Positions 1,078 to 30,155 of a stretch of DNA of 33,446 nt are shown piece after piece. The number at the start of each line of letters is the position of its first letter. The stretch's first letter is position 1. The stretch is from the IMG/VR virus record IMGVR_UViG_3300047556_000036, positions 1 through 33,446 of that record; one strand, given 5' to 3'. The notes below the pieces were generated by a model. That model was not told where the DNA came from and searched no databases. It was given only the letters and a program-made list of their open reading frames with translations. The position numbers and the translations under genes were made by a program. The stretch comes from a virus.

Positions 1078-2373
1078 TTAAAATGTCGAAGCGACCGATC
1101 CAAAGATTTTTGGATTATCACGGTGCCTGTGTGCGAATGCTACTTTGTAGTGCTTATAAAGCATTGCAAGTCCATGCCCTTCCACAGTACTAGCCGCTAC
1201 CTTCATAGTTGGTGGCTTGATAATGGTGACTGACATAACTCGTTTTCTAACAGGTTCTTCCGACATCTGGCAGTTCTGGCAGAGGTCGTTTACCACGCCT
1301 TCATCAAGAGGTATATGTTCCTCCGTTGGCGGCTCCTTGAGTAGGTCCACTTCTGTATGATCGTTTAGTATATCGTCAATACCTTCGTGAACCTTATCAG
1401 CTGATTCAGCTAGCTCGGGATTATCGGCCCCTATAACGCTGGCGAAATCTTTAGGGCAGAGCATGAATCCACGTTTTGTCAAGTTTGCTAAGACCTGACT
1501 AGTACCGTAAGCCTTGCAAGCACTGGCTAGCTTCTTAATAGTGTCTTCGTGAACACAATTAGGAGTAGCTGCCTTACGCACTGAAAGAGGTACTTGCTTG
1601 ATTATCTCAGCTATCGCTTGTTTTGTAGCTACTTTTGTAAAGCTTGGATAAACTAGGCCTGCTTCCTTAGCCAGTTCGTGGCCGCCTATAACTCTATTAG
1701 CTGATGCAACCTTTTTGAGTGTATAAGCAATACGATCAGCTGGCTTCCAAACTAAAGAGATGTCAAAATACTTGGGATTAGGGTTCTTCATGTAAACGAC
1801 TGAGCCGTCTTTAAGAACCTCGCCTAGATTGTTTTTAATATGCTCGCAATGGTCACTAGCTTCCGGAGCCTTGTGCCCACAGACGCTACAGACATCATAC
1901 TCTTGGCTAGAACCCATGCTTAGTGGTACGTCCTTACCACTATTTAAAGCGTTAACTTCCTTCTCACATTTCTTATTGTCTAGAGCTAGTAGAAGCTCAA
2001 TACGGTCCATTAAGTCGTTGTGAGAAGTAGCTAGTACGTCACCAACTGATAAAGACGGGTCGTTATGCTTGTGGTGTTTGAAAACAGTGCCAATATCTTT
2101 AAACGTCTTATGTGCTGTTACATTATCCTTACGGCTAAAGGCGTCACAATTACGGTTGGCGCCATATCTTTCCTCATCGCCTAAAGCTATAACGTGAATT
2201 ACAGTCTTTCCAGGCATTGGCTTAACTTCAGAGATTGCCTTAGCTAAACCGGACTGACTAGCCGTTTTAGTCATCCAGTTGCTGTCTACACCTTTACGAT
2301 GAATAGGTACTAGACTTGTGGATGGATCTCCAAAGTCGTACGAGTCGGTTGTAATAAGCTTTACAATACTCAT
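1078..2373 (-). CDS. Prohead maturation protease-like protein with Cys/His cluster
   Basis: 431 residues. The N-terminal 200 residues resemble the serine-type prohead proteases of large phages: a beta-rich start (IHVIALGDEERYGANRN), a His-rich segment KHHKHNDP (residues 99-106) that could supply the catalytic His, a predicted long helix, and a VPLSMGSS segment (149-156) with a candidate nucleophile Ser152. Right after it comes a metal-site-like cluster, C162-x2-C165 with C176-E-H178. Such a protease would digest scaffold and trim head proteins during capsid maturation. The C-terminal half is helical with repeated K-x-A motifs. The gene lies between structural-type genes and the scaffold-like gene, as in portal-protease-scaffold modules. 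It starts at ATG 2373, with the previous stop overlapping as TAATG. The family call is by motif only. Confidence 0.62.
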   Translation of the reverse strand: MSIVKLITTDSYDFGDPSTSLVPIHRKGVDSNWMTKTASQSGLAKAISEVKPMPGKTVIHVIALGDEERYGANRNCDAFSRKDNVTAHKTFKDIGTVFKHHKHNDPSLSVGDVLATSHNDLMDRIELLLALDNKKCEKEVNALNSGKDVPLSMGSSQEYDVCSVCGHKAPEASDHCEHIKNNLGEVLKDGSVVYMKNPNPKYFDISLVWKPADRIAYTLKKVASANRVIGGHELAKEAGLVYPSFTKVATKQAIAEIIKQVPLSVRKAATPNCVHEDTIKKLASACKAYGTSQVLANLTKRGFMLCPKDFASVIGADNPELAESADKVHEGIDDILNDHTEVDLLKEPPTEEHIPLDEGVVNDLCQNCQMSEEPVRKRVMSVTIIKPPTMKVAASTVEGHGLAMLYKHYKVAFAHRHRDNPKIFGSVASTF

Positions 2374-6043: not shown

Positions 6044-8260
6044 TTATTCCTCTACCTGTGACTGGATACCTAGACCGTAATGATCTGGATCGCCGGATAG
6101 GCTGCGCTTCTTAGCGAAGGTAACTAGGTCGCCTAGGTTGCTAAAAGTTGATTTGAGATTGTCAAGGAACTCGGCTAGGTCGTTCTTGCCGTAGCGCTTC
6201 TCGAACTCTGGGTAGTGCCAGTAAGCTAGGAAGAGGATACGGCCTAGACGGTCCATGCCGGCAATAACAGTGGGTAGGAACCTATCAACTATTTCGCCTG
6301 GGTCACTTGACTTGATTAGTGAGCCTAAAACAGACGCATCGAACACGTCCTTCTGACCAGTCTGCATAGCTTTGGTAACCTTGGAAAGTGGACTAGACTC
6401 TTCCTCACCTAGGCCGTTACCTTCGTGGCCGCCACCACCAAACGGACTATTATAGGTATAGAAGTCACGGTTATCTTCCGGAGTTACTTTGTTAGTAAGC
6501 TGGAGAGGCACCTGGCTCTTATGAAAGGCTGACATTTCGTTGCCGTAGCTCTCGTCCATACCTTCATCAGGATAATCGACAAACTGCATAGCTTTCTTAA
6601 CGAAATAAGAGTCGATATGTGGTCTTGCGTTGTCGATGATTATAGCCGCGTCTTCTTCACTTAGACCTTTAGCCTTCATGAGGTAGTTATAGCAGGCAGC
6701 CTTATGCATGGCATGTGTCTTATCGCCATCACGTAGGGTAATGAGGTGGTCGTTCTTCCAAACCTGGATCTCTTCAGCAGTCTTGCGAAGCTCTGAGCGA
6801 ATAGTGTTGTAATCGCCAAAGTCGGCGGAGGCTAGCTCCTTGCCGTAGGTGTTGTCCTTCTCTTCGGCCGTGTACTCGCCTCTCTCAACCATCTTAAAGT
6901 GGCTAAGTGTTATAGCTACATGATGCTTGTCATTTACAACAAGCTTACCACGTAGGAACACCGGCTTAGGATTAATGCCGCCAACAACAACTGTCTCGAT
7001 CCTATCTACTGGGTCAAGCCTTGTCTGCCTTGAACCAGCTGGATTCTTAATATAGCCGAAATGTTCGTAATAAGGCCAGTCCTTACCTGGGAAGTTTAAA
7101 GCAACTGGAGCGCCTGAGCAGCCTATCCAGGCTTTTGAAGCGGTGAAGACTGTAGTATCGTCAAGGCCGTTCATCTTTTCGCGTAGAGAGACTGCACCAG
7201 TGGCTACACCGTCTGCATTGGCAAATATAACTATATCGCCTGGCTTGCACTCGCTAGGCTTATGACCGACTTTCTCAAGCTCCTTAGCATATTCAACATC
7301 TGAGTACTGCCTGACAACGTGTACGACCTGCGGTTCAATTTTGCAGAAGTTCTTATCGTCTAAACGATATACAAATACCGAGGACTTCTGGTCAGTGCCT
7401 AGCATAACTAGACAGGCCTGCACAGACCCGTCAGCGAAAAGAACGTCGTACATACCACCACGTGCTGGATTCTCTAGAACCTGCTTAGTCTCTGTGGTAT
7501 ATAGGATTGACTTAGAAACCTCTGGACGCTTATCAATAGCAGCTACGCCACCAGAGATAAGCTGTTCGCGTTGCTTATCGCTAAGATCCTTTGCATTCTC
7601 GTCAGTTATAGAAGTAATAATTACTACTTTAGGCTTAGCGTCTGCTGCAACCTTTACAATTTCCTTATCTGCGTCTACGAAGTCTGCATAGTTATAAAAG
7701 ACTTCTACAGCGTCACGAAGCTTTACATTCCTATCGAGGTCTGCCCTGAATGCGTTTGCGATCTTGGCAGATTTGAGAAGACTAGGGAGATCTTCTACAT
7801 CATCGTTCCTAAAAGCTTTCATGCCTTCCACAGCGGCTGAAGCTACCTTAAGATTTACGCCGCCATGTGAGCTTGGGAGGATACGAAGACGGGCATAGTT
7901 AGGCACTCTTACGCCTAGCTCACCCTGGCTACGGGTCTCTGGTTGACCAACCGAAACCTGCTGCTTGTTGATTAGTGAGTTAACCCACTCTTCAGTTAAT
8001 GGTAGGAACAGGTCTGAGTCGACTGAGTAGACACTCTCTAGCCCACGAATTTCACCATTAAGGAAGAACACTGGGCAGTAGTACACCTTCTCGTCAATCT
8101 CAAAACCAAACAAGCCTATAGCTCTCTTACCTTCTTCCTCAGACTTAATCATCTGGAAACCAAGGAGATAATCGAGAAGGCCCGACGCTTTGTCTCGCAG
8201 ACTAGCATATGCCAGGTCTGCAAAGGTCTTCTCAAGCATGGTGTTATTGGTCTCTGGCAT
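6044..8260 (-). CDS. Large hypothetical virion-type protein, 738 aa
   Basis: No family recognised with certainty. The N-terminal 110 residues form a hydrophobic domain (LLDYLLGFQMI, then VYYCPVFFLNGEIRG) that is distinctive enough for a homology search. The middle is a beta-rich region (about residues 200-450) with IVIFANADG-like strands, and the C-terminal part is helical and ends in a charged tail. K-x-A motifs are frequent (KVASAAVEG, KIANAF, KTAEEI). There is no signal peptide. It lies just downstream of the beta' C-terminal gene and upstream of small genes leading to the protease, so a packaged or structural protein is likely. The start at 8260 has only a weak ribosome site (ACGAG). Confidence 0.72.
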   Translation of the reverse strand: MPETNNTMLEKTFADLAYASLRDKASGLLDYLLGFQMIKSEEEGKRAIGLFGFEIDEKVYYCPVFFLNGEIRGLESVYSVDSDLFLPLTEEWVNSLINKQQVSVGQPETRSQGELGVRVPNYARLRILPSSHGGVNLKVASAAVEGMKAFRNDDVEDLPSLLKSAKIANAFRADLDRNVKLRDAVEVFYNYADFVDADKEIVKVAADAKPKVVIITSITDENAKDLSDKQREQLISGGVAAIDKRPEVSKSILYTTETKQVLENPARGGMYDVLFADGSVQACLVMLGTDQKSSVFVYRLDDKNFCKIEPQVVHVVRQYSDVEYAKELEKVGHKPSECKPGDIVIFANADGVATGAVSLREKMNGLDDTTVFTASKAWIGCSGAPVALNFPGKDWPYYEHFGYIKNPAGSRQTRLDPVDRIETVVVGGINPKPVFLRGKLVVNDKHHVAITLSHFKMVERGEYTAEEKDNTYGKELASADFGDYNTIRSELRKTAEEIQVWKNDHLITLRDGDKTHAMHKAACYNYLMKAKGLSEEDAAIIIDNARPHIDSYFVKKAMQFVDYPDEGMDESYGNEMSAFHKSQVPLQLTNKVTPEDNRDFYTYNSPFGGGGHEGNGLGEEESSPLSKVTKAMQTGQKDVFDASVLGSLIKSSDPGEIVDRFLPTVIAGMDRLGRILFLAYWHYPEFEKRYGKNDLAEFLDNLKSTFSNLGDLVTFAKKRSLSGDPDHYGLGIQSQVEE

Positions 8261-8288: not shown

Positions 8289-10181
8289 TTATTTTAGCTT
8301 TGGAAAGGACTTAACACTACCGTACTTACCTAGACTGGTCAACTTCTGGCCTAACACAGACGGCTTGGCTATGGCTGGGGCGTAAGACGTGGAATCCGTG
8401 TCTGACTCTGCCCCCCTATGAAGCGCCTTGTCAAACGCTGACGAAGTGTAAAAACCTACTAGCCTTGTGCGCCAGTCTGGGTCATGGTATACAGACTGGA
8501 TAGACCTTATCATGTGCGGCTGGAAGTCTGGCTCTACTGGATGGGCGTAGACGTTATCAATTTTCCAGTCCTGCAGCTTCTTGGCTACCTTCTTATTAAT
8601 CCTTGTGCCCGGTGTAAAGTGTAGAACAGGCTCTTCTAGATAATGCCCTATAAGCTTATTAGGGTTGTCTAACTTAGCATCTTTTCTAGGTTTATAACTG
8701 TAGCTGAGCTTATTAAACGGTACTATGTCTCCGTATATGTTATCATCAATGCCATCTGGATTTGTCACTTCTGCCCAGTTTAGTAATCCTGTTACGACTG
8801 GTTCTAAGTTGCGACGATTGGCGCTTACGCCTGAGTTCTCTAGACCCTCTCTAAGATAGCCTATATACGCACGACGAGCTTCACCCATTCCACGAAGCTT
8901 GACAAGTTGTGATGGATGCGGTACGCCATCTGTCAAGTCGTCGCCAGCCTCTACGTGATCACCAACCTTTACAGTCGGTGCCAGTGAAGAGTGTGCATAA
9001 TACTTCTTATTTCCTACGTGAATGTAGTTACCGCCTTGTGGCGCTGCCTCAATCTTGTCAACGACTCCGTCTTCCTCGCTTAACGGGCCGGCCTCCTCAA
9101 ACTCCTCTGGGGCGTCTAAAAGCCTATTAAGATATTCAATGCCTGACCTAGATGCCTTAGCTTTAGCGCCTAACGAGTGTTTTGCTGATAATTGACCCTG
9201 AGACAGTTTCTCGCCAATGGCCTGTGCGGCCTTAAGTCCTATATTGTCGCCTATAGTAGACAGACCGGCCCTGTCGCGCTTACCAGCGGCATAGGAGCTT
9301 ATGCCTCCATCAGGTGACGGTTCGGTAATAGTAGAATGTATAAGAATCTCTTCAGCACCTGCGTCTTTAATATCGCTTAATACCTTGGAAGTTATTACAG
9401 TCCCTGCTTTATAATTACCGATATCGCTAGCTAGTACAGCGCCTATATTGTCCTTATCATCAGCTGGGACAACTAAGCCAACTGGAAGTCTTGTTGGCTC
9501 TGGAGCGTCTCTTGACACTACTAGCCTATGGGCAGCGTTAGACAGACGCTTAGTCATATACCCAGCATCTCCTACGCCAAGCTTTACGGCTACTGCGCCT
9601 TTACGCTGGCTAAACGTGGACGCGAAATACTCGGCTGGGGTGTATCCCTCTGCGTAAGAGTGCCAGATAGGGATTGGCATTAGTCTGTCATGCTGATCTT
9701 GTGAGAGTAAATCAGCGCCTCTCATTGATCCTAGATCACCCTTTTTGCCTCTAGCTCCGCTCTCCAGCTGCATAACGTAGGGCGAGTTTTCTTCCTTAGA
9801 CTCTTTATAAACTGCATCCTGTAGTTTAGACATTAGTGGGAGCAGGGTGCCTGTTATGGCTTCTTCCCTTGCCTTGTCGTCTAATGCGTCGTCGTTTATG
9901 ATAGCGGATACTTGTTTCTTGGCTTCAGATAGCAAAGCTTCCTTAACTTTAGACTTTCTAAGCGCCGAGAGACTAACAGACGCTCCCTCAGTCCAAGCCG
10001 CCGTCCTTCCAATATCTGATAACTTAGACAGTATGTCTGCGTATTGTTCGGGGTACTTCTCTGCTACAACCTGGAATAGCTTCCCTATTTCGGCCTTATT
10101 AAAGCTATGCCTAGACTTCCTAAGCTCCTCAGGAAGTGCCTCGTTAATGAGGATGGTGCCTATGTTTGTAACTTCACTCAT
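8289..10181 (-). CDS. RNA polymerase beta' subunit, C-terminal part (split)
   Basis: 630 residues matching the second half of bacterial beta'. Landmarks in order: an N-terminal helical region; SGARGKKGD (141-149), equal to the conserved SGARG element; a bridge helix of the form GY-x-PAEYFAST-x5-GA...AGYMTKRL (about 178-212) followed by AHRLVVSRD; and a trigger-loop region GDNIGLKAAQAIGE (311-324) with a retained His at 335. The zinc-binding Cys cluster that precedes the trigger loop in bacterial beta' is absent. It supplies the moving catalytic parts of the polymerase, so it must assemble with the beta-beta' N-terminal gene at 12757-18438. Starts at ATG 10181, overlapping the preceding gene by 8 bp. 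Identity is firm from motif order; transcriptional specificity is unknown. Confidence 0.9.
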   Translation of the reverse strand: MSEVTNIGTILINEALPEELRKSRHSFNKAEIGKLFQVVAEKYPEQYADILSKLSDIGRTAAWTEGASVSLSALRKSKVKEALLSEAKKQVSAIINDDALDDKAREEAITGTLLPLMSKLQDAVYKESKEENSPYVMQLESGARGKKGDLGSMRGADLLSQDQHDRLMPIPIWHSYAEGYTPAEYFASTFSQRKGAVAVKLGVGDAGYMTKRLSNAAHRLVVSRDAPEPTRLPVGLVVPADDKDNIGAVLASDIGNYKAGTVITSKVLSDIKDAGAEEILIHSTITEPSPDGGISSYAAGKRDRAGLSTIGDNIGLKAAQAIGEKLSQGQLSAKHSLGAKAKASRSGIEYLNRLLDAPEEFEEAGPLSEEDGVVDKIEAAPQGGNYIHVGNKKYYAHSSLAPTVKVGDHVEAGDDLTDGVPHPSQLVKLRGMGEARRAYIGYLREGLENSGVSANRRNLEPVVTGLLNWAEVTNPDGIDDNIYGDIVPFNKLSYSYKPRKDAKLDNPNKLIGHYLEEPVLHFTPGTRINKKVAKKLQDWKIDNVYAHPVEPDFQPHMIRSIQSVYHDPDWRTRLVGFYTSSAFDKALHRGAESDTDSTSYAPAIAKPSVLGQKLTSLGKYGSVKSFPKLK

Positions 10182-10383
10182 CTTTGTTCTTTACGTCTAT
10201 AGTCTTTATACCGTTATCGACACAAACCTTATGAAAAGCTTGCTCGCTAGCTGAGGCATAAACTATAAAGCCAGCCTTCTCAAAAGCTAGTGCCACTGGC
10301 TCGCCCTCATCGGTATGTATAACCACTTGCGAGGCAGGCAGAGTATACACCTTACCAGACCCGTGAATGATCTTTACAAACAT
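10174..10383 (-). CDS. Hypothetical small protein, 69 aa
   Basis: A compact, probably beta-rich protein (VKIIHGSGKVYTLPASQVVI) ending in a Lys/Asp tail. No family recognised. It sits between the 576-residue gene and the beta' C-terminal gene, overlapping the latter's start by 8 bp, so the two are probably translated together. It might be a small accessory of the polymerase or a virion component; nothing in the sequence decides this. Start ATG at 10383. Confidence 0.6.
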   Translation of the reverse strand: MFVKIIHGSGKVYTLPASQVVIHTDEGEPVALAFEKAGFIVYASASEQAFHKVCVDNGIKTIDVKNKDE

Positions 10384-10384
10384 G

Positions 10385-12115
10385 TTAAACCTTAAACTTA
10401 GGTATCTGCTGACTTTGTGTGGGCGTTAAAGGCTGTAACGGCTGCTGTGGCTGATTAAAGCTTACACCAGGGGCCTGGTCCTGTAGGCCGGGCACGTCTG
10501 TAAACCTAGGCTTAAAGTCTTCGGAGTCCCTGTTAATTCCTAAAGTGGACATGTTACCAAGCGTGCTAGGCGACATACCTCTGCTACCCAGTAGCTTAGC
10601 CATTCGTGTGTTGCCTGCGTAGGATTTGTTATCAACAAACTCTTTAAACTTCTCTGGAGATGACCTAGCTAGTGTTAACAGCTTTGTAGCGTCTTTATTC
10701 CTATATACCTTAGCTTTATGCATCTCGTTAGCCAGCTGTAAGCCTTCCATAGCAGTATCAGTTACTAGTGCTGGGTCCATATCCTCAGTACTTAGATATC
10801 TTGACGCTCTCCTAGCTGCCGGATTCTTTGAAAGATCTCTTACGAATTTAGCTACCGCGTCTGGGCCTCTGGCTATAACGTTTTGTACTAACTTTTTGTT
10901 CTTAGACGCTGCATAGGCTAACAGCCCACCAGACTGACCACCTCTGCCTAGGGCAGCATAGTGCTGTATGGAGTCGCCTATAATCTTTTCTGCCTTTTCT
11001 GGATTGTCGGCATAGCGCTGTAACAGGGCGCTGTTCTTAGCTATAAGTTTACCTAACACTAGAGGCGACATACCAACCCTGGAAGCTGATTCAGCAACTG
11101 ACTGCAGTATATCAGTGCTAAGACCAGTCCCCTCTGCCATCTGCCTAATAGCACCGAACTCGTTCATTGCTGCGGATGGGTCGATCATTACGCGCTTAGC
11201 TAGATTTCCACTAGAAGCCATTCTAAGAGCCTTACCCATAGCATTAGGATCATTAGCGTTTATTAGGCCAGACCCCATAGCTGCCTGTGCTGCTCTTGAT
11301 AGGTTTATAGCATGGTCAACCGTAGCATTCGGGCCATATACCTCTACTGCTCTTGCCATTGCATGCGAAATCATTTCTGGAGCGGCGTTTGGCGGGAACC
11401 TACCTTCCCCCTGCGCCTTATAGAAATCGCCATAAATTCTGTCGATAACCTGCTTGCTGTGACCGCCTCTGTTGAGCAGTAGCGCCGCCCTCTGTAGGCC
11501 TGAGTCGTCTATCAGCATCTGCGGTACAAACTGTTTTATCATACCAGTTAATTCTGGCATGATTGGACTGAACTGCTTTACAATTTGGCCTATAGTACTT
11601 GGATCTGCATTAGCTATTCTAAAACCCTTAGGGATGCCTACCTTGTCTCCGTACTCAGCTATCAGGCCGTCCAGAACCTTAGCTACTGGCGAGTCTATAA
11701 TAGCCTTACCAATAGCTGGAGTAACATAACCGCCAGCGTAGCGCTGGGCGTTCATTCTAGCCTGTACTCTACCAGGATCGCCAGTTCCTGGACCCATCTG
11801 TCTTAACTTGGTTAGTTCCTGCCAATGTGGGGCTATGTTCTTCTGCCAAAAGTCTGTCTTGCCAAATAGCAGTGGGGCATACTGCGCAGTTAGGCCGGCA
11901 ACCGCACCACCAGTTTCGCCGCCAACCATCTGTCCAACAGGCACGGCTGCCTGCATGAGGTTGCCTACGCCCTGCTGGTCTACGCCGGCATAGCCACCAG
12001 GTGACAGCCAGCTTTGATAGCTAGCTGCACCTGGCTGTACTGGCTGAGGTAGAAATGGAACAGCCTGGTCTCCCTCGGCTGCCACCTTCAGTAGATACTG
12101 GCTGCCAAGTCTCAT
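10385..12115 (-). CDS. Putative internal virion protein, Ala/Gly/Pro-rich, 576 aa
   Basis: The N-terminus is a short hydrophobic/basic leader ending in LLKVAAEGD (residues 8-16), nearly the same as LIKKAAEGD in the 313-residue gene and a good prohead protease site (A-A-E). Next come a Gln/Pro/Gly-rich segment, a Gly/Ala hydrophobic stretch (VGGETGGAVAGLTAQYAPLLFG), and a long helical region from about residue 140 to 500. The tail is Gln/Pro-rich. No enzymatic motif is visible. A packaged internal or tape-measure-like protein is plausible. It starts at ATG 12115, overlapping the stop of the preceding gene by one base, inside the polymerase block. Confidence 0.7.
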   Translation of the reverse strand: MRLGSQYLLKVAAEGDQAVPFLPQPVQPGAASYQSWLSPGGYAGVDQQGVGNLMQAAVPVGQMVGGETGGAVAGLTAQYAPLLFGKTDFWQKNIAPHWQELTKLRQMGPGTGDPGRVQARMNAQRYAGGYVTPAIGKAIIDSPVAKVLDGLIAEYGDKVGIPKGFRIANADPSTIGQIVKQFSPIMPELTGMIKQFVPQMLIDDSGLQRAALLLNRGGHSKQVIDRIYGDFYKAQGEGRFPPNAAPEMISHAMARAVEVYGPNATVDHAINLSRAAQAAMGSGLINANDPNAMGKALRMASSGNLAKRVMIDPSAAMNEFGAIRQMAEGTGLSTDILQSVAESASRVGMSPLVLGKLIAKNSALLQRYADNPEKAEKIIGDSIQHYAALGRGGQSGGLLAYAASKNKKLVQNVIARGPDAVAKFVRDLSKNPAARRASRYLSTEDMDPALVTDTAMEGLQLANEMHKAKVYRNKDATKLLTLARSSPEKFKEFVDNKSYAGNTRMAKLLGSRGMSPSTLGNMSTLGINRDSEDFKPRFTDVPGLQDQAPGVSFNQPQQPLQPLTPTQSQQIPKFKV

Positions 12116-12705
12116 TAGGCTAGAGGACCCTTGATGCTTGATGGATCAAACCCAGGCATACCAGTTACTGGGCCAGGTTGCCCAGCTGGTGCCGCTGCGT
12201 CCGCACTCTCAGGCTTTTTAGCCTTGCCAACCATCTCAAGTGTCTGGCGCACAATGTCCATGGTACGCTTGGTAATCTTGTCAACTACCTGCTCATCCTC
12301 AGCAGTTAGACCGGCTGAAGATGGCGCTGCGGGCGCCGGCGCTGCTAGGCTTGCTAGCATAGCTGGGTCCATAGGAGGCATACCACCCATAGCTGGATCA
12401 ACTGGAGGCGCAGCACCGGCCATAGCAGGGTCCATGGGAGGAGCCCCGCCAGCCATCGCAGGATCCATAGGCATGCCAGCAGCTGCGGGATCGGCCATCA
12501 TAGCTGGGTCCATAGGCGCTCCACCGGCCATAGCAGGATCCATGGGCATGCCGCCCATCGCCGGATCGCCGCCCATCATAGCCGGATCAACGGGTGCTCC
12601 ACCTGGGCCAGGCGCCTGCTGCGCGTGCTTGCCTAGTGGCACAAAAGCAGTCTTAGTTAGGTGTTCGGCTAGTGCGCGCTTGAAAAGTCTGGCTGCTTGA
12701 GTCAT
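12115..12705 (-). CDS. DPAM-repeat low-complexity protein, 196 aa
   Basis: The N-terminus (RLFKRALAEHL) carries an A-x-E-like leader (L-A-E at 12-14). Residues 40-116 hold eight D-P-A-M units plus one D-P-A-A, separated by Gly/Ala/Pro/Met. The C-terminal part has a predicted helix (about residues 135-165) and a Pro/Gly-rich tail. Such repeats suggest a flexible or extended protein rather than an enzyme. It lies directly downstream of the polymerase fusion gene with a 51-bp gap, and AAGGA stands upstream of ATG 12705. A role as an internal head protein or assembly linker is inference only. Confidence 0.65.
   Translation of the reverse strand: MTQAARLFKRALAEHLTKTAFVPLGKHAQQAPGPGGAPVDPAMMGGDPAMGGMPMDPAMAGGAPMDPAMMADPAAAGMPMDPAMAGGAPPMDPAMAGAAPPVDPAMGGMPPMDPAMLASLAAPAPAAPSSAGLTAEDEQVVDKITKRTMDIVRQTLEMVGKAKKPESADAAAPAGQPGPVTGMPGFDPSSIKGPLA
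12358..12588 (-). repeat. Tandem D-P-A-M coding repeat
   Basis: Imperfect tandem repeat within the 196-residue gene. It encodes D-P-A-M at residues 40, 47, 56, 66, 81, 92, 103 and 113 with a D-P-A-A at 72. Unit length varies from 7 to 11 residues, and synonymous codons differ between copies (Asp GAC/GAT, Pro CCA/CCT/CCC/CCG), so the array is not a recent exact duplication. Confidence 0.8.
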
Positions 12706-12756
12706 ATGTGTCCTTAAGGTAGTGTCTTAGTTAGTTTTACAAGCTATGGAGGATAA

Positions 12757-15700
12757 TCAACCTTGGAGTACTCTAATGGGCGTTCTAGCTGATATATCTC
12801 CACGAGCATATGCCCTCTTGGCATCTTGCACAGTCTGGAAAGTCTTTACAGGCTCATTAGTATTAATCTGGCTAGCTAAGTACATACCGGCTATGTAGTC
12901 TTGCATAGGCAGCATATGGGCCTGGAAGTTACCTGAAGAGAATAGGCGCTTAGAGGGCATTAGCTTGTCTTCTAAGTCCTTAATAGCTTCTCTAGTGCTA
13001 GGAACGTGTATGTTAATGGCATCACCATCGTTGTCAGCGCCCAAGCCTGCGTAAGATGTATAGGGTACTCTGATGGCATGGTCATCCGTCAATTTTGGCC
13101 ACCCCGCGAAGTATGCATACTGGTGTAAAGCTGGAGCACGATTATAGGCTACTGGTCTTACCTTTACTTCTTCTAATAAGGCTTTTTTAGCATCCTCCGC
13201 CCTGTTTTGTACTGCTAAGACTGCTTCGCTAGCCGGCTTACCAGCCTGGACAAGCCTGCGTATAATATAAGGCTTGTAGATGTTCCAAGCCATTTCAAAG
13301 GGTACGCCCACTTCGTCCATCTTTAAAGTACCGTCAGCGGTTATAACACCTCTACCAACCTGATCGACCGACTGGCCTATAACGCGTCTCTGATAGTTTG
13401 AGAACTTAGGGGAGTCACCTAGTCCTATAGCATACCTTAGAATACCCTTTACGCCTTGCTCTGCGTGTTCTTTATTGACCGGGTCTTCTGCGCCAGCTAT
13501 GGCTCTAACGGCCTTCAGTAGCGTTAAGTACTCGTCTGCTGTTGATCCTATTTCGTTCTTAGCGTCTAGATAGTTCTGCTTAGCTTCTAACAGGTCATGG
13601 TATAAATAGTTAAAGTCGTGCACCATGTCTGTGTTAGTTCCAGTCATGATAGGCCTGTACTTAGGCGGAATAACTGGAATTTTACTTACCATTAGTTCTT
13701 CTGGCTTAACTTCCATCTTCTTAAGACCAGCCAGATAGTTTAGCTTTCTTACAGCTGCGTCCTTCTGTCCCTGCTTGCCTGTTCTTATAGTTACTTTACA
13801 GGCTTCCATATCCCTGTTGATATCTACACCCTTTAGAGCAGCCTCAATAGCCGCTGGACCTGTATTGCCGTTTAACTGTTCCTGACCAGATAGGACGGAT
13901 AGTAGGGTCTTATTTGTTATGCCTAGAAGCTTCTGAATTGGGTCGATGAATAGTGGATGTGGAATCTTCTCTGGAAGCGTGATCTTGGCATACATGTTGC
14001 CGTCTGCACCGCCTGTCTTACCTATGTCGAATAAGCCATCTTTGATAGGCTCCATCGACTCAAAATCAAAAGTCTTTGAGTTACCTATTTCGTGTCTTGC
14101 TATCTCGTCAACATCTCTGTCTAGAAGCGGCCTGAGCTTCTCCTTTGTACCGTCCTTCTGAACGTGTACACCAGCAGCTGTTAACATGTCTAGAAACTCT
14201 TGGTCCGCTATAGCTCCGTCAGGTAGAACTGGCTCTTCGCCGTTTCTAATAGCCCTCCAGTAGTCGTCGTTCCTCTGCCCCCTAACTAGCTTGGCGTCCT
14301 TTAAGAAGTTAGTAGCCCCTGCTGCGAGTAGAACAGAGTTGTCCATAAGCGAGATTCTCTTACTGCCCTCAAAACCACCCTTGGCTGGGTAGCCTGATGT
14401 GGTGTAAGAACCGGAATCTCTGGCTGACATCTTACCTTCCGCTTTGTGCGTAAGCCTCATGACATAGCCATTGCCTACAAATATACCTGGAATCTTTCTA
14501 CCGTCTCTTGGATCTGTTACAGTCTCTAGCTCTTTAATGCCGTGTTTGGCCGCTTCGTTTAAAGCAAACTCAGCAACGTCTGGGGTACCAAAGGCTTTTA
14601 CTACATACGGTTTGCCTGTCTTGGCTGCCACCTTACCTAGTAACTGTTCAGCTAGCGTACTCGGATTAATTCTTCCGATTACCCCATTTGTGTTTACTAG
14701 AACATCTATTGTGTTACCCTCTTCGTCTATGGGCATCTGGTCATCTGGTCTTACAACAACTACGCCTTTATTACCGTAGCGCATGCAAATCTTGTCAGCG
14801 TGGTCTACGTTGTCTAGGGACTTAACGTATACTCTTATACCATCTTTAGTGTTTACAATGTCTGTCACTATACCATCAGACTTATGATCCCAGGTCTGGC
14901 TTAGGTCTGAGTGAGAAGACTTGGGAGTGTTCATGACGGCACCAACCATACTCTGCGGCTTCTTGCCTATACCGAGTATTAGAGGATCCCCAGCCTTTAC
15001 AGTTTCTCCAACCCTGATGATACCACTATCGTCTAACTTGCTGTACTGGTCATTATTGAACTTGTCGGCGTATATAGCTACGTAATCGTCCTTCTTAGTA
15101 CTGAGCAGATTTTTAGTATCTAGCTCAGACTTATACATAGCTTGAGCACCTAGCTTCTTGGCAGCTGACTCGGAGATTACATAGGCATCTTCAATTGTGT
15201 CACCCTCAGCAGTCATATAGGCTGTCCTGAGATTCCTACCCACAGACATTACACCGTTCTTGTCAGTGTAATTAGACCTAGCTAGTAACTGACCAGCTGC
15301 CACAGACTGGCCAGGCTGCACAAGAGCCTCATTGTGCATGAAAGACTTACGACCAGTGTGGTAGTTGTTATAAAGATCTACAATCTTCTTACCTTCTTTA
15401 GTCGAAATTTCTATAAAGTCTGGTGTGACTCTTGTGACTATACCATCTGCTGGGGCATGCTTAGCTCCTAGGAACTTGGACATGCTGGAGTGTAAGGAAG
15501 TACCATCATCGTCTGCTGTCTGCACGAGAGGAGCTTCAGGCTCAATAAGCGGAACAGCCTGCTGGGTATTGTGTACAAAGATACCGTTTGCGCACATAAA
15601 CACGTTATCGCCCATGTCTATGTCGTATACATACTCGTAGTCGGATTCATCTAACTGCCTAATTGACTTAACCTTGTCCCACTTAACGCCAGAGTTAAGC

Positions 15701-18438
15701 CATGGCACTGACGCGGCTGTTTCGCCAAGCGCTTCTTTTACTGACTGTTTAGTGTGCTGATCTACGTATATTTTATGTCTTGCCGTAGAGCGTCGGCTTG
15801 ACAGCCCCACTATCTGCTGCTTTAGCGAGGCATATATAGGCATCCAGTCTGCTGACTTTTTACCGGACCATGGGGCTGCTGCCCTTATTATTGCGTCTTT
15901 TCTTTCACAGCACAAAGTTGGTACTAAAGATGTGTGTTCAGACCTAACCTCAAAATAATGCTGAGTAGCCACTGCCCCGCCTGGGCCGGTGTTGACTTCG
16001 CGTTCGTCCTGCGTGGTGGCTATACCTAACGAAGTGCATAGGTTGCCTAGCCCAACTATAAGCTCCTTACTCCTGCTTGATCCATTTATGCGAACTCTAT
16101 CTCTACGACGCTGTACACCGCCATCTCCAGCTATGTACCCGGCTAGTAGACCTCTCCTGAATTCCTCTGGAGCAAAGAATACCCAACCAGGTATGCGCTT
16201 GTTATAAGCACCATCGCCAAAGTCCTCTTTAAGCTTTTCGTATAACTGCTTCCAGTATACTCTTACTCTGTCTAGCTTTCCATCTGCTCTACCGGACATT
16301 GGCTTGCAGCCTATACCTATATCGCAAAAGAACTTAGCCACTCTGTCAAGAACGTCTAGGTCACAGTTAGCAAACGTGACATACGTTTTTTCGCCGTTCC
16401 TGTCATTTCCGCAGCCGTATCCCTCTGATAAGTACATTCCATGTATCCAACCAAGCTGGAAGTCCAACTTAAACTCAGCGCCGCTGTGCGAATTATGCTT
16501 GTTTCCACCGTTGACAACCCAGTTATCAGTGAACTCTTTACCTACAGCAGGAATTACACCAGCAATCGGAATAGCAGTGCCTGGAACCATGTCCTGGGTA
16601 TACATTTTCTTCAGGTAACCGTCGTCTCCAATGGTAACAAAGCTATGGTCGGCGGTAGCGTCAACGTACCTTCCACTTGCTAATTCTACCCTGTACATCT
16701 TCTTTACGTTCTTGTGTGGTATAAAACCTACTATGTCCATCCACTCTAACTGACATGTTTTCTTGTTAATGGACAGAGACTTGTCGCCAGGCGTAAATAC
16801 GTAACCTTCAATTGGGCCATAATAAGCTGTGCCGTCTAGTCTGCGAATAAGTACAGCTGTGTCACCAGAAACACTCATGCGTGCACCCATGAGCAGACGA
16901 CCAGACTTTACACCCTCGAACTGTGGTATAAGCAGAGAAGCCTTTGAGAACATTCCATTAGCTGACGGTACTTCATAGTCTACTTCATCTTTGTTCACGT
17001 AGACAATATTATCGTTCTTGATAGCTGGTACACGCTTATCAGGAGTGCTAAGCTCTCCTGGGAATGTTACAACCTTACTAGCTAAATCTCTTGCCGAGAC
17101 TGTTTCAAGCTGACCAGTCCTGATATTCTTTACAGTCGCGTAAAGCTTGTTATCGCTGCCGCGCTTAGCACCTGCGGCTACGCGTAGGTCTAGTCCCATG
17201 TTACTCGATTCTGGTGCTCTTTCAGGGGCTATTACACCAATATAGCTAGCCTGTATACCGCGAGCATCTCTGCTAACACTCTGCTGTGAAGCTATACCGC
17301 CTTCACCAAGTCTTGTCACGCCCTGTCTAAGATCGTAAATGTCTAGAGGGTTATTATCCTCTGGCTGCAATGTAAGGCCAGACCCGTTAAACAGTGTGTC
17401 AATATTCTTGTCAAGCAGTCCAGGCTGTACAGTCCTTAAAGAGCCTTCTCTGGCCGCCTTCCACAGAGCAGTCCTGAGCGCCTTTATCTGGTCCTTCTTA
17501 AGCCTCTCAGCTACTAAATCTTCTGCGGAATGGAAAGACTGATAAGCCTGCGAGTCTCTGTTGTCGCTCTCGGCTCTGTCGTTGGCTACATCTAGCTGCT
17601 TCTTGGTAGCCCTTAATAGGATCTGAGGAGACAGCGTCTTGATTCTCTCACCTAGAGTAAGTTCGCTAGTTTCCTCATCAATTTCTGTCCTGTTAATAAT
17701 ATCTTTAATAACCTGCGGAAGCTGTTCAGGGGGAATATCTAAATCGGATCTGCCTAATTTCTTGGCAACCTTGTCGAGGTCTAGTTCGTCCTTACCAGAC
17801 TCTGCTCGGAAGTTACGGTTAAATAATTCGTCTCCCCAGGCTTCCTTCATCTCCTCGTCAGAGATGCCTAGACTCTTTAGTACTGGATATAGCCTCGTAG
17901 TGGATTGGTCTATCCTCATTTTGAACAGACCAGATTCCGGCTCTAGCTCTACTCTGAAGCCTCTACCAGTGCCTGGCTTAACATTAAAGTGAGTTTCTAC
18001 TCCGCCGTTTTTCTTTTTACGAGTATATGCACCAGGCCTTAATCTTGCCTGGTTCCTTATAACATATGGAATACCATTTCTTATAACTGTACCTCTGCCA
18101 GTAAGATGCGGTACGTTAGCGACTGTCATCCTCTTTTCTTCTATAATATTACCCGCTAAGTCTGACAAACGCATAGTAGCCTTTAGAGGCCTATATAGAC
18201 TTTTGCGCTTTAGTATGGCCTCTTTTTCCTTGGCTATACTGAAATCAGCTGGTCCATCGTAACCAATATCTGCTAGCTCTAGTCTGTGCGTAGCGTTCTG
18301 TAAAGGCTCTCTTTCCGACAAAGCCTTTATAGCATTGTTATAAATATTTTCACGCTCTGAATCAATATCGTCAAAACTACGGAAGGACACTTCCGGCTTT
18401 ACTGGGTCTAGCGGACCTGTTTCAAATGTATCGGCCAA
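12757..18438 (-). CDS. RNA polymerase beta / beta' N-terminal fusion with intein
   Basis: 1893 codons; 1457 residues after removal of the 436-residue intein. The beta part shows the lobe motif HLTGRGTVIRNG (111-122), the fork/rifampicin region (IASQQSVSRDARG, then NMGLDL), GNKGVV (1222-1227) and the C-terminal MRLTHKAEGKMSARDSGSY (1327-1345) with GGFEGSKR. It runs without a break into beta' N-terminal sequence: KDGLF (1466-1470), AKITLPEKIPHPLF (1484-1497), then the active-site barrel NRAPALH (1766-1772) and ADNDGD (1801-1806), whose three Asp bind the catalytic metal (bacterial NADFDGD). The chain ends soon after at MYLAS. No beta' zinc ribbon is visible. The rest of beta' is at 8289-10181. 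Start is TTG at 18438, one base after the preceding stop, with GGTAGG upstream; no in-frame ATG occurs until about residue 89, which would delete conserved sequence. Confidence 0.93.
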   Translation of the reverse strand: MADTFETGPLDPVKPEVSFRSFDDIDSERENIYNNAIKALSEREPLQNATHRLELADIGYDGPADFSIAKEKEAILKRKSLYRPLKATMRLSDLAGNIIEEKRMTVANVPHLTGRGTVIRNGIPYVIRNQARLRPGAYTRKKKNGGVETHFNVKPGTGRGFRVELEPESGLFKMRIDQSTTRLYPVLKSLGISDEEMKEAWGDELFNRNFRAESGKDELDLDKVAKKLGRSDLDIPPEQLPQVIKDIINRTEIDEETSELTLGERIKTLSPQILLRATKKQLDVANDRAESDNRDSQAYQSFHSAEDLVAERLKKDQIKALRTALWKAAREGSLRTVQPGLLDKNIDTLFNGSGLTLQPEDNNPLDIYDLRQGVTRLGEGGIASQQSVSRDARGIQASYIGVIAPERAPESSNMGLDLRVAAGAKRGSDNKLYATVKNIRTGQLETVSARDLASKVVTFPGELSTPDKRVPAIKNDNIVYVNKDEVDYEVPSANGMFSKASLLIPQFEGVKSGRLLMGARMSVSGDTAVLIRRLDGTAYYGPIEGYVFTPGDKSLSINKKTCQLEWMDIVGFIPHKNVKKMYRVELASGRYVDATADHSFVTIGDDGYLKKMYTQDMVPGTAIPIAGVIPAVGKEFTDNWVVNGGNKHNSHSGAEFKLDFQLGWIHGMYLSEGYGCGNDRNGEKTYVTFANCDLDVLDRVAKFFCDIGIGCKPMSGRADGKLDRVRVYWKQLYEKLKEDFGDGAYNKRIPGWVFFAPEEFRRGLLAGYIAGDGGVQRRRDRVRINGSSRSKELIVGLGNLCTSLGIATTQDEREVNTGPGGAVATQHYFEVRSEHTSLVPTLCCERKDAIIRAAAPWSGKKSADWMPIYASLKQQIVGLSSRRSTARHKIYVDQHTKQSVKEALGETAASVPWLNSGVKWDKVKSIRQLDESDYEYVYDIDMGDNVFMCANGIFVHNTQQAVPLIEPEAPLVQTADDDGTSLHSSMSKFLGAKHAPADGIVTRVTPDFIEISTKEGKKIVDLYNNYHTGRKSFMHNEALVQPGQSVAAGQLLARSNYTDKNGVMSVGRNLRTAYMTAEGDTIEDAYVISESAAKKLGAQAMYKSELDTKNLLSTKKDDYVAIYADKFNNDQYSKLDDSGIIRVGETVKAGDPLILGIGKKPQSMVGAVMNTPKSSHSDLSQTWDHKSDGIVTDIVNTKDGIRVYVKSLDNVDHADKICMRYGNKGVVVVRPDDQMPIDEEGNTIDVLVNTNGVIGRINPSTLAEQLLGKVAAKTGKPYVVKAFGTPDVAEFALNEAAKHGIKELETVTDPRDGRKIPGIFVGNGYVMRLTHKAEGKMSARDSGSYTTSGYPAKGGFEGSKRISLMDNSVLLAAGATNFLKDAKLVRGQRNDDYWRAIRNGEEPVLPDGAIADQEFLDMLTAAGVHVQKDGTKEKLRPLLDRDVDEIARHEIGNSKTFDFESMEPIKDGLFDIGKTGGADGNMYAKITLPEKIPHPLFIDPIQKLLGITNKTLLSVLSGQEQLNGNTGPAAIEAALKGVDINRDMEACKVTIRTGKQGQKDAAVRKLNYLAGLKKMEVKPEELMVSKIPVIPPKYRPIMTGTNTDMVHDFNYLYHDLLEAKQNYLDAKNEIGSTADEYLTLLKAVRAIAGAEDPVNKEHAEQGVKGILRYAIGLGDSPKFSNYQRRVIGQSVDQVGRGVITADGTLKMDEVGVPFEMAWNIYKPYIIRRLVQAGKPASEAVLAVQNRAEDAKKALLEEVKVRPVAYNRAPALHQYAYFAGWPKLTDDHAIRVPYTSYAGLGADNDGDAINIHVPSTREAIKDLEDKLMPSKRLFSSGNFQAHMLPMQDYIAGMYLASQINTNEPVKTFQTVQDAKRAYARGDISARTPIRVLQG
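15568..16875 (-). mobile_element. Intein with LAGLIDADG homing endonuclease in RNA polymerase beta
   Basis: Residues 522-957 of the polymerase fusion. The N-terminal splice block is SVSGDTAVL with Ser as residue 1. The block B motif T-x-x-H is T595-A-D-H598. The C-terminal block reads YVYDIDMGDN...CANGIFVHN, ending in the His-Asn pair needed for Asn cyclisation, followed by Thr as the +1 extein residue. Two LAGLIDADG helices are present: LGWIHGMYLSEGYG (662-675, acidic E672) and LLAGYIAGDGGV (764-775, D772), so the endonuclease may be active. Joining the flanks restores GARM-TQQAVP, matching bacterial beta GANMQRQAVP. All splicing residues are in place, so splicing is expected. CTAG tetramers number 5 here against 10-11 in each flanking stretch of equal length (counted by eye), weakly suggesting separate origin. 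Confidence 0.95.
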
Positions 18439-23360: not shown

Positions 23361-25190
23361 TTATTGTGGAGGAGCCTGTCCAGCGCTTTGCTGGATCATC
23401 ATCTGTCCGCCTTGCGACCTGGCTTGGCTTCTTAGCTCTTCTAGCTTGGCCTTTACAAGACTATGCAGTTGTTTATTGCCTTCTCTAAGCTGCTTAAGCT
23501 GTGACTTACGTTCAAAGTCCTGCATAGGCAGTATCTGCTGAGCGATCTGAGTAGCCTGTTCGTCCATTTCAGCTAATGAAGTCGGGGTCTCCTGGCCAAC
23601 TCCCGGTATACCTCCCATAGGCATACCACCCTGCGGAGTACCTGGAGCAGCGCCTTGAGCGCCCTGCTGAAGCGCTGAAGGAGTCTGGGAAGCGACCATA
23701 CCGCTAAGGACGCCCATTTCCTCTTCCTGCTTCTGCTTCTCAGCTGCCTGCTGCTGAAGCTTGGCAATGAACTCCTGCTGCTTGATAACCTTCTTAGCTT
23801 CGGAGTAGGCGTCGATGCCAAGAGGCTCGAAGGCAGTCTGTGGCGATAACTGATTACCTGCCATAAGCTGCATAAGCATGGACTTGTAGTTCATGTCATC
23901 AACAACAGTAGTCTTCTGCATGAGAACTGCAGTCTCTTCTAGACCATATACCCTTGCCAGTGTCTTTACAGTCCAGTCTAGGACTTTATTGTACATAGCT
24001 GGTATATGATTCCAATAAGACTCGAACAACCTGAGTGCCATTGGAGCAGCCTGAGCAGACAGCGTACCCTGGTGATACTCTAAAGGCACGCCTAGCTGAT
24101 TAAGATACTCCTGCTGCCTAAACTTTAGCTTGTCTGGTGTAATGAGCGTAGCGCCTTCGCCGCCCATGAACTGGTAGTTAAGCGGGAACGGGGCGGTGTG
24201 ATACGATGTAGGATTCTTGCGCTGCGCACCTATGATCGCCTGAATATTGTCTACAAATTGCTGATTACCCTGAACCTGCATGGGATCTGTACCACCGGCA
24301 GTAGGTGCTGGGCTTATAACCCTCATGCCTAGTGTGTAGTCTAACACACAGGCCTGATCGGCTTTGTTTGTAAGCTGTAGCAACCAACCAGTACGGAAAT
24401 TGCTTATGGCTCTAGGAAGACCCCAACCACGCGAGTAAATACCAGTTATAGGCTGCTCAGATATGTGTAGCACTAGGTCTGGGTTTAGTTTTAGTTTACC
24501 GTTGACTGCGACAGCCTCTAAAACCTCCAAAGGTGTGTCATCAATATGGATTCTAGCTTTGCTGTTGTAGTCTTTACGGTCTTCTTCGCTTATCTTCCAG
24601 TATATGTCCTTGCGTAGACTGTGCTTATTCTGCGCAATCTCAATGTCCATTGGGTTAAAGCGATTATAGGCTACCCTGGTTAGGTCGGAGTCTCTGCGAT
24701 CCTTAATTTCATAGGGAGAAGTATTACCACACTTAGGGCAGGATTCCTTCCTATGCCATATTAAGTTCGGGGCTCTAGCGGAAAATTCTAGTCTATAGTC
24801 AATAGCGGATAAGGGCTGCTCAGTGCCGCAATTCTTACAGATCGCAAATCTCTTAAAAGGTAGATACAGACCAATGATAGCGTTACCGTAACAAAGAAAC
24901 TCTCTAGCTATCTGTAACAATTCAGTCTTATAGTCCATCCCATGTAGGAACAGATCCTTCCAAGAGTTTTCCTCGTCTGGCTCAAGATCTGGAAACTGGA
25001 CAGAGGTTATAAAATGCGAGGCAACCCTTTCCATCGCAGTACGGTATGTGCCGTCCAAATTCCAAATGTATTGACTCCACCAGAGGATCAGCTGGTGGCT
25101 GTCTGGCATGCTTAAAGAAGCATAGTCCAGCCAAGGACTTGGGACGAATGAACCTTCTTTAGAGCCTGGCTGGGATGGATAAAACGCCAT
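23361..25190 (-). CDS. Portal-like protein with zinc-ribbon insertion
   Basis: 609 residues. The core looks like a phage portal: N-terminal helices with SHFITSVQFPDLEP, a long helix entering GNAIIGLYLPF, beta strands, ISNFRTGWLLQLTNKADQ, and the segment LKFRQQEYLNQLGVPLEYHQG that resembles the portal stem region with its preference for a bound particular start point. Two CxxC pairs (C118-C121 and C151-C154) form a likely zinc ribbon inserted in the wing part. The last 120 residues are Gln/Met/Gly/Pro-rich with a coiled-coil segment. The portal forms the ring through which DNA enters and leaves the head. The gene order portal, small genes, polymerase, protease, scaffold supports it. The identification rests on overall pattern, not on a computed match. 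Confidence 0.6.
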   Translation of the reverse strand: MAFYPSQPGSKEGSFVPSPWLDYASLSMPDSHQLILWWSQYIWNLDGTYRTAMERVASHFITSVQFPDLEPDEENSWKDLFLHGMDYKTELLQIAREFLCYGNAIIGLYLPFKRFAICKNCGTEQPLSAIDYRLEFSARAPNLIWHRKESCPKCGNTSPYEIKDRRDSDLTRVAYNRFNPMDIEIAQNKHSLRKDIYWKISEEDRKDYNSKARIHIDDTPLEVLEAVAVNGKLKLNPDLVLHISEQPITGIYSRGWGLPRAISNFRTGWLLQLTNKADQACVLDYTLGMRVISPAPTAGGTDPMQVQGNQQFVDNIQAIIGAQRKNPTSYHTAPFPLNYQFMGGEGATLITPDKLKFRQQEYLNQLGVPLEYHQGTLSAQAAPMALRLFESYWNHIPAMYNKVLDWTVKTLARVYGLEETAVLMQKTTVVDDMNYKSMLMQLMAGNQLSPQTAFEPLGIDAYSEAKKVIKQQEFIAKLQQQAAEKQKQEEEMGVLSGMVASQTPSALQQGAQGAAPGTPQGGMPMGGIPGVGQETPTSLAEMDEQATQIAQQILPMQDFERKSQLKQLREGNKQLHSLVKAKLEELRSQARSQGGQMMIQQSAGQAPPQ

Positions 25191-29828: not shown

Positions 29829-30155
29829 TTACTCCGTCTGCCTTATCATATCACACTCTGCACCTGTCAAGTTACCTTTACCTGCTGCTTCTATAGCTGC
29901 TAGTTTGATTTTCATGTTTGCGTATAACTGTAGAAGCTTTGTCAAGGTGTTGCAGACTAGATAAGCTATAACGGCATAAAAGCATAGAGCTAGCGTATCT
30001 GGGGTTAAGACACCCTTTGAAAACCATAACACCAGGGCTATTAAAATTACGACAGCCCACAGTCTTGTGCTGGTCATATCGCTGTGGCCTATCTCGTCTG
30101 TTATACTTGCCTTTGGCTTCTTAGTAAATGCTGTGATGGCGTCAGATAAGCTCAT
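29829..30155 (-). CDS. Two-helix membrane protein, holin-like
   Basis: 108 residues. A polar N-terminus precedes two hydrophobic helices (about 32-48 and 53-75) separated by a short turn (SKGVLTPD), then a charged C-terminus. Size and layout match class II holins, small proteins that open the inner membrane at lysis, but many other small phage membrane proteins look the same. It has by far the strongest ribosome site in the window (AAGGAGGT), implying abundant product. Start overlaps the TGA of the endonuclease gene (ATGA). Confidence 0.55.
   Translation of the reverse strand: MSLSDAITAFTKKPKASITDEIGHSDMTSTRLWAVVILIALVLWFSKGVLTPDTLALCFYAVIAYLVCNTLTKLLQLYANMKIKLAAIEAAGKGNLTGAECDMIRQTE

What the first reader, a model, noticed from the sequence alone, without database searches (positions are those of the whole stretch)
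8289..18438. Phage RNA polymerase with beta fused to half of beta', and the other half of beta' encoded apart
One gene carries a complete beta-like chain that passes straight into beta' up to the active-site barrel (ADNDGD); bridge helix and trigger loop are in a separate gene 2.5 kb downstream, with three unrelated genes between. In phiKZ-type phages both beta and beta' are split; in Helicobacter and Wolbachia beta and beta' are fully fused. This mixed layout (fused beta-beta' N, separate beta' C) is different from both. The beta' zinc sites are also missing.
Basis: partly seen in the sequence, partly recalled or inferred. Interest (0 to 1): 0.85.

Follow-up and report, generated by a model that had tools for sequence, protein, structure and literature searches.

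The report
Phage RNA polymerase, fused then split
This virus of bacteria carries its own cell-type RNA polymerase whose two big subunits are fused into one chain while the last third is made by a separate gene; the same layout recurs in dozens of related phages, and a cultured relative carries these proteins in its virus particles, so it is a real, widespread and apparently undescribed gene architecture rather than an error.

Summary
ORF 12757-18438(-) encodes a complete beta-like chain running straight into beta' through the active site. ORF 8289-10181(-) supplies the bridge helix, trigger loop and rest of beta', 2.6 kb and three genes away. The layout is not a one-off or a frameshift. It recurs in 70 non-redundant phage loci, including cultured Salmonella phage Arash and Vibrio phage D69. 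A sister clade (37 loci) has beta-beta' fully fused in one ~2070-aa chain. Phages outside both clades and bacteria have unsplit beta'. The best history is therefore: beta-beta' fusion first, then one break of beta' after the catalytic barrel. Catalytic residues are invariant. No alpha homologue was detected in 16 related records, and each had one RNAP. In Arash both pieces are among the five proteins with most spectra in purified virions (PMC10585845), so I read this as a virion-packaged, alpha-less RNAP for early transcription. Phage multisubunit RNAPs are known (mReC, phiKZ), but I found no description of this fused/split layout. The beta' zinc ribbon is absent family-wide; the second zinc site was lost in the window's lineage.

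The parts
12757..18438 (-). beta-beta'N fusion gene (1893 aa precursor, TTG start; 1457 aa after intein removal)
15568..16875 (-). 436-aa intein (Ser1 ... His-Asn | Thr+1) with LAGLIDADG endonuclease, inserted in beta at the position of E. coli beta ~686 (GARM|TQQAVPL vs GANMQRQAVP)
   Evidence: Pfam Intein_splicing 1.6e-15 and LAGLIDADG_3 1.5e-9; boundaries by alignment with intein-free relatives
14767..14793 (-). beta catalytic lysines (DK...NKG; E. coli K1065/K1073 equivalents), invariant in 40 homologues
14150..14153 (-). approximate beta/beta' junction (beta ends ...AAGVHVQKDG, beta' begins TKEKLRPLLDRDV...), no linker domain
   Evidence: position +/- about 10 residues, by reading the alignment
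12760..14150 (-). beta'N: clamp start (zinc ribbon deleted), clamp helices, catalytic barrel
13021..13038 (-). ADNDGD metal-binding motif of beta'; three Asp invariant in 40 homologues
12115..12705 (-). 196-aa Met-Asp-Pro-Ala repeat protein between the two RNAP genes (homologues in 24 loci)
10385..12115 (-). 576-aa protein between the RNAP genes, no family (one homologue, in closest relative L064)
10174..10383 (-). 69-aa ORF overlapping the start of beta'C
8289..10181 (-). beta'C gene, 630 aa: bridge helix, trigger loop, C-terminal clamp/jaw part
9156..9230 (-). trigger loop (AAQAIGEKLSQGQLSAKHSLGAKAK), Q328 and H335 (= E. coli Q929, H936) invariant in 46 homologues; bridge helix starts at 9605
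6044..8260 (-). 738-aa homologue of Arash virion protein gp218, next to beta'C (homologues in 69 loci)
23361..25190 (-). 609-aa homologue of Arash portal protein gp204
1078..2373 (-). head maturation protease-like protein, homologue of Arash virion protein gp222

Best explanation
The locus encodes a two-chain, alpha-less, cellular-type RNA polymerase of a large tailed phage. Gene 1 is made as a 1893-aa precursor whose intein excises itself to leave a 1457-aa beta-beta'N chain with both catalytic barrels. Gene 2 makes the 630-aa beta'C chain, which docks non-covalently and supplies the bridge helix and trigger loop. The genes sit in the late structural cluster, and the assembled enzyme is probably packaged in the virion and injected, with a phage sigma factor in at least some relatives, to transcribe early phage genes. 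The architecture arose when beta and beta' fused in a phage ancestor (still a single ~2070-aa chain in a sister clade) and beta' was later broken once after the barrel. Shown here: both chains, the intein, conserved catalytic residues, recurrence and phylogenetic grouping. Taken from a paper: virion presence in Arash. Inferred: splicing, assembly, activity, early-gene role.
For: Sequence homology of each part. AlphaFold models: beta'C pLDDT 85.5 with best PDB matches all bacterial beta' chains (E 5e-30); post-intein piece pLDDT 87.1, best matches bacterial beta. Active-site Asp x3, beta Lys x2, trigger-loop Gln and His invariant across 40-46 relatives. Same layout in Arash, D69 and many contigs, ORF ends at the same profile position within a few residues. 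In 119 split loci beta'C lies downstream on the same strand in 118, median gap about 1.7 kb, redundant loci counted. Single RNAP and no RNA_pol_L (alpha) match in 16 related records, while the control finds it in 13 of 14 cellular genomes; sigma region 2 in 7 of 16. Full-fusion sister clade and unsplit outgroups. In Arash virions gp206 (fusion) has the most spectra of any protein (3516, 128 unique peptides) and gp216 (beta'C) 1210 (PMC10585845). Synteny with Arash portal, gp218 and gp222.
Against: No transcription, splicing or assembly has been measured. The window motif is GADNDGD rather than NADxDGD and the lineage is fast-evolving. The Arash authors note that the enzymes could be carry-over from abundant intracellular protein. 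The window is a 33-kb fragment, so a second RNAP, alpha or sigma elsewhere in this genome cannot be excluded. Long branches could distort the tree; IQ-TREE timed out before giving supports.
Confidence: 0.72

Rival explanations
1. The enzyme is a non-virion RNAP made during infection for middle or late genes, and its presence in purified Arash particles is contamination.
For: Arash authors raise this possibility; some relatives encode sigma factors, fitting staged transcription.
Against: Fusion is the top protein by spectra, above major capsid; genes lie among virion-protein genes; one RNAP per related record, so no separate virion RNAP of this type.
Confidence: 0.22
2. The split is older: an ancestor acquired a cyanobacteria-like or phiKZ-like split beta', fused beta to beta'N, and the fully fused clade later rejoined beta'C.
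For: phiKZ and cyanobacterial beta' are also split after the catalytic barrel (PMC7598289); the two clades are sisters, so the tree alone does not order split and rejoin.
Against: Outgroup phages (RHph_Y65, Va2, Carin-5) and bacteria have unsplit beta'; the split here falls about 60 residues before the end of the cyanobacterial gamma chain (gamma residue 552 of 624 aligns 8 profile positions before the fusion's end).
Confidence: 0.15
3. The two genes are one gene interrupted by an undetected split intein or intron and are rejoined by trans-splicing.
For: Relatives carry a group I intron and what looks like a split intein elsewhere in the same gene.
Against: Fusion ORFs end within a few residues of the conserved profile end and beta'C ORFs start with conserved beta' sequence, leaving no intein halves; no Rfam intron in the window; three genes intervene.
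Confidence: 0.03
4. Assembly or frameshift artefact that fused two genes.
For: Single metagenomic contig.
Against: Continuous ORF, and the same fusion in isolates with complete genomes and about 100 contigs.
Confidence: 0.01

Closest known systems
Salmonella phage Arash gp206/gp216 (OQ632216) and Vibrio phages D69, D148, D181
   Same: Same layout and protein family; in Arash also shared neighbours; gp206 1525 aa and gp216 606 aa, 4.8 kb apart; both found in Arash virions
   Different: Deposited as two 'subunit beta' genes or hypothetical proteins; the passages of the Arash paper read here do not describe a fusion or split; no intein in Arash; D181 has a group I intron in beta; Arash keeps the C-terminal zinc site
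mReC, multisubunit RNAP-encoding Caudovirales (Weinheimer and Aylward 2020, PMC7481178)
   Same: Phage beta/beta' alignable with bacteria, forming a clade apart from bacteria; structural-gene neighbourhood
   Different: Paper speaks of beta and beta' subunits and does not mention fusion or split in mReC; its strict NADxDGD filter would miss the window (GADNDGD)
phiKZ/AR9-type virion and non-virion RNAPs
   Same: Phage-encoded, alpha-less, beta' broken after the catalytic barrel, virion form known
   Different: There beta is split too (4-5 chains), two RNAPs per genome, no sigma; here beta is whole and fused to beta'N, one RNAP
Helicobacter/Wolbachia rpoBC fusion (own knowledge)
   Same: beta C-terminus joined to beta' N-terminus
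   Different: There the whole of beta' is in the chain, with alpha and omega; in the window beta' is cut (the phage sister clade is fully fused)
Cyanobacterial rpoC1/rpoC2
   Same: beta' divided between catalytic barrel and bridge helix
   Different: Break lies about 60 residues further on; beta is separate; zinc ribbon present (own knowledge)
Inteins in eukaryotic and viral second-largest RNAP subunits (PMC1635734)
   Same: Inteins at conserved active-site-facing sites of the beta homologue
   Different: Those are eukaryotic or eukaryotic-virus genes; here a phage, plus many further insertion sites in beta, beta'N and beta'C of relatives

Membership tests
mReC RNAP (Weinheimer and Aylward 2020) | beta and beta' homologues on a tailed-phage contig with structural genes | tested here: met
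mReC RNAP (Weinheimer and Aylward 2020) | NADxDGD motif in beta' | tested here: not met
   window reads GADNDGD; relative L003 reads NADFDGD
mReC RNAP (Weinheimer and Aylward 2020) | phylogenetically apart from cellular RNAP | tested here: met
   phage group monophyletic against 25 bacteria, support 0.995; archaea and eukaryotes not included
mReC RNAP (Weinheimer and Aylward 2020) | falls inside the published 97-contig clade | not testable with these tools
   their sequences are in external files not held here
phiKZ-type jumbo phage RNAP | beta split in two or more genes | tested here: not met
   beta whole and fused
phiKZ-type jumbo phage RNAP | two RNAPs per genome | tested here: inconclusive
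   one full beta'C match per record in 16 related records; the window itself is a fragment
Complete rpoBC fusion | whole beta' in the same chain as beta | tested here: not met
   window split; met by sister clade L104 and most of L199-L274
Intein | splicing blocks with nucleophile at position 1, terminal HN and +1 hydroxyl/thiol residue | tested here: met
   Ser1, ADH block B, HN|Thr; Pfam 1.6e-15
Intein | protein splicing activity | not testable with these tools
   needs expression
Virion RNAP | chains present in mature particles | not testable with these tools
   reported for homologues in Arash (PMC10585845), not for this virus

The most novel reading that the evidence does not exclude
A large clade of tailed phages carries a packaged, alpha-independent RNA polymerase built as one beta-beta' chain, and its genes are such strong targets for self-splicing elements (inteins at many active-site positions, a group I intron, an apparent split intein) that lineages such as the window's were cut permanently in two through a mobile-element intermediate. 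This would show the intron/intein route proposed for how the split RNAP genes of jumbo phages arose.
Probability: 0.25. Interest if true: 0.78.

Novelty: new variant of a known kind. Interest (0 to 1): 0.6.

Why it matters
It adds a third way of dividing the two universal RNAP subunits and ties it to a sister clade with a single-chain enzyme, giving natural two-chain and one-chain RNAPs that appear to work without alpha. That makes testable how the core assembles without its alpha platform and whether fusion replaces it. It also shows phage RNAP genes frequently invaded by inteins and introns, bearing on how split RNAP genes originate, and points to cultured phages (Arash, Vibrio D69/D181) in which this can be tested.

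Tried and rejected
Trans-splicing across the gap: no intein halves at either end. RNA intron in the window: no Rfam match. Assembly error: rejected by recurrence. Alpha subunit in relatives: none of 16 records. BFVD fold search found no fused homologue; best matches are separate subunits, though BFVD may simply lack these phages. Query with L104 as single protein only found itself; a profile led by it found the fully fused clade. Literature searches for the layout or for phage RNAP inteins returned nothing describing them. IQ-TREE bootstraps timed out; only the FastTree supports can be cited. The beta'C C-terminal extensions in some relatives did not match any window gene.

Full report
Observation. 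The window is a complete 33,446-base IMG/VR virus record, probably a genome fragment. ORF 12757-18438(-) matches RNA polymerase beta (Rpb2_6, 2.6e-40) followed by beta' (Rpb1_2, 1e-15), and inside it Pfam finds an intein splicing domain (1.6e-15) with a LAGLIDADG domain (1.5e-9). Phmmer aligns the end of the fusion with E. coli beta' 174-551 at 3.4e-30; a profile of four relatives aligns the beta part with cyanobacterial beta 32-1063 and the beta' part with B. subtilis beta' 149-539. ORF 8289-10181(-) is beta' from B. subtilis about 589 onwards (matched 614-1093 at 4.3e-26). Three ORFs of 196, 576 and 69 aa lie between.

The intein. Relatives without an insert run from GRLxMxARM straight into xQAxPL where the window reads GRLLMGARM-SVSGDTAV...GIFVHN-TQQAVPL. 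Removing residues 522-957 gives a 1457-aa extein. The site corresponds to E. coli beta about 686. In Vibrio phage D181 the same gene is broken by a group I intron (Rfam, E 3e-25) with an HNH endonuclease gene, inserted 12 codons upstream of the window's intein site; joining across it restores the uninterrupted D69 reading frame. In other relatives large insertions occur at many other sites, including next to the NADFDGD motif and in beta'C; several begin with C or S and end in N before C, S or T, as inteins do, and for L009 Pfam confirms one.

Junctions. Beta runs to its usual C-terminus (FLDMLTAAGVHVQ) and passes directly into beta' (LRPLLDRDV...EPIKDGLFD), with the beta' zinc ribbon deleted (the match to the E. 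coli termini is from own knowledge of those sequences). No phage locus of 80 has the cysteine pairs of that ribbon (the same test rings in 31 of 46 bacterial loci, so it is not perfect); the second, C-terminal zinc site is present in 35 of 80 and absent in the window and its relatives. The fusion ends within a few residues of the same profile position in nearly all relatives. In the fully fused L104 about 20 residues separate the two profile ends, where B. subtilis has about 48.

Distribution. Profile scans of IMG/VR found 28, 414 (80 kept) and 210 (80 kept) relatives. After removing near-identical ones the tree set holds 70 fused/split loci, 37 fully fused loci and 5 three-piece loci. Cultured phages with the fused/split layout are Salmonella phage Arash and Vibrio phage D69; D181, and by its match pattern D148, carry the intron version. 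Rhizobium phage RHph_Y65 and Vibrio phage Va2 have an unsplit beta' gene; Cobetia phage Carin-5 has unsplit beta' and beta as separate genes in reversed order.

Phylogeny. On concatenated beta C-part, beta'N and beta'C the phages form one clade against bacteria (FastTree support 0.995). With the wider set, fully fused (0.997) and split (0.99) loci are sister clades, with RHph_Y65/Va2 outside. An unfinished IQ-TREE run gave the same groups without supports. Because outgroups have unsplit beta', fusion followed by one break is the simplest reading; break then rejoining is not excluded.

Structure and catalysis. AlphaFold gives pLDDT 87.1 for the 936-residue post-intein piece and 85.5 for beta'C. 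Foldseek finds bacterial beta for the first, over about 560 of its columns, and bacterial beta' for the second (E 5e-30). The beta' part of the fusion is not listed separately among the top 50 fold matches, so its identity rests on sequence. The three catalytic aspartates and two beta lysines are invariant in 40 relatives; trigger-loop Gln and His (E. coli Q929, H936 by ungapped alignment) are invariant in 46.

Function. In Arash virions gp206, the fusion, had the highest spectral count of all proteins (3516; 128 unique peptides), gp216 had 1210, and a sigma factor (gp10) and the helicase gp217 next to gp216 were also found; the authors consider early transcription or carry-over (PMC10585845). 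The window shares with Arash the portal gene upstream and homologues of virion proteins gp218 and gp222 downstream. In 16 related records there is one full beta'C match each, no RNA_pol_L match, and sigma region 2 in seven. I infer a packaged, alpha-less enzyme for early genes.

Comparison. phiKZ-type RNAPs break beta' after the barrel too, at a position said to coincide with cyanobacteria, but they also split beta and come in two copies; intron mobility has been proposed as the cause of their splits (PMC7598289). The mReC paper describes phage beta and beta' with 97 contigs and contrasts them with the fused crAssphage enzyme, without mentioning fusion in mReC (PMC7481178). Whether the present clades are the mReC cannot be tested here. 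No paper found describes the fused/split layout or inteins in phage RNAP genes, but only open-licence PubMed Central papers were searched.

Noticed in passing
L006 13431-14366 (Vibrio phage D181): Group I intron with HNH homing endonuclease gene inside the beta part, 12 codons upstream of the window's intein site; D69 lacks it.
   Followed up: yes
L093 9851-16695: Beta broken at ..KGG.QG|SKR with N- and C-intein-like halves on two ORFs and a 638-aa ORF (no homologue in the loci held) between: looks like a split intein that would need trans-splicing. Pfam did not call the halves. L087 is similar with only a 240-nt gap (could be a frameshift).
   Followed up: partly
L104 and about 45 of L199-L274: Complete beta-beta' fusions of about 2020-2800 aa in phage contigs, sister clade to the window's.
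   Followed up: partly
L019, L029, L030, L031: Three-piece variant: beta plus the start of beta', then a 387-392 aa beta' catalytic piece in an overlapping ORF, then beta'C.
   Followed up: partly
L008, L045, L046, L049, L070, L087, L093: beta'C carries a C-terminal extension of about 500-750 aa of unknown kind.
   Followed up: no
L013, L017, L024, L073, L106: Intein-like insertions inside beta'C, near bridge helix and trigger loop; L106 has several in one polymerase.
   Followed up: partly
Arash record positions 7557-7760 and equivalents in two related contigs: Weak second match to beta'C profile positions 221-294 (E about 1e-6) in a small ORF; a possible duplicated fragment.
   Followed up: no
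window 30152-31297: 381-aa HNH homing endonuclease gene (phrog_559, 1.6e-88).
   Followed up: no
window 12115-12705: 196-aa protein with repeated Met-Asp-Pro-Ala-Met motifs; homologues in 24 relative loci.
   Followed up: no
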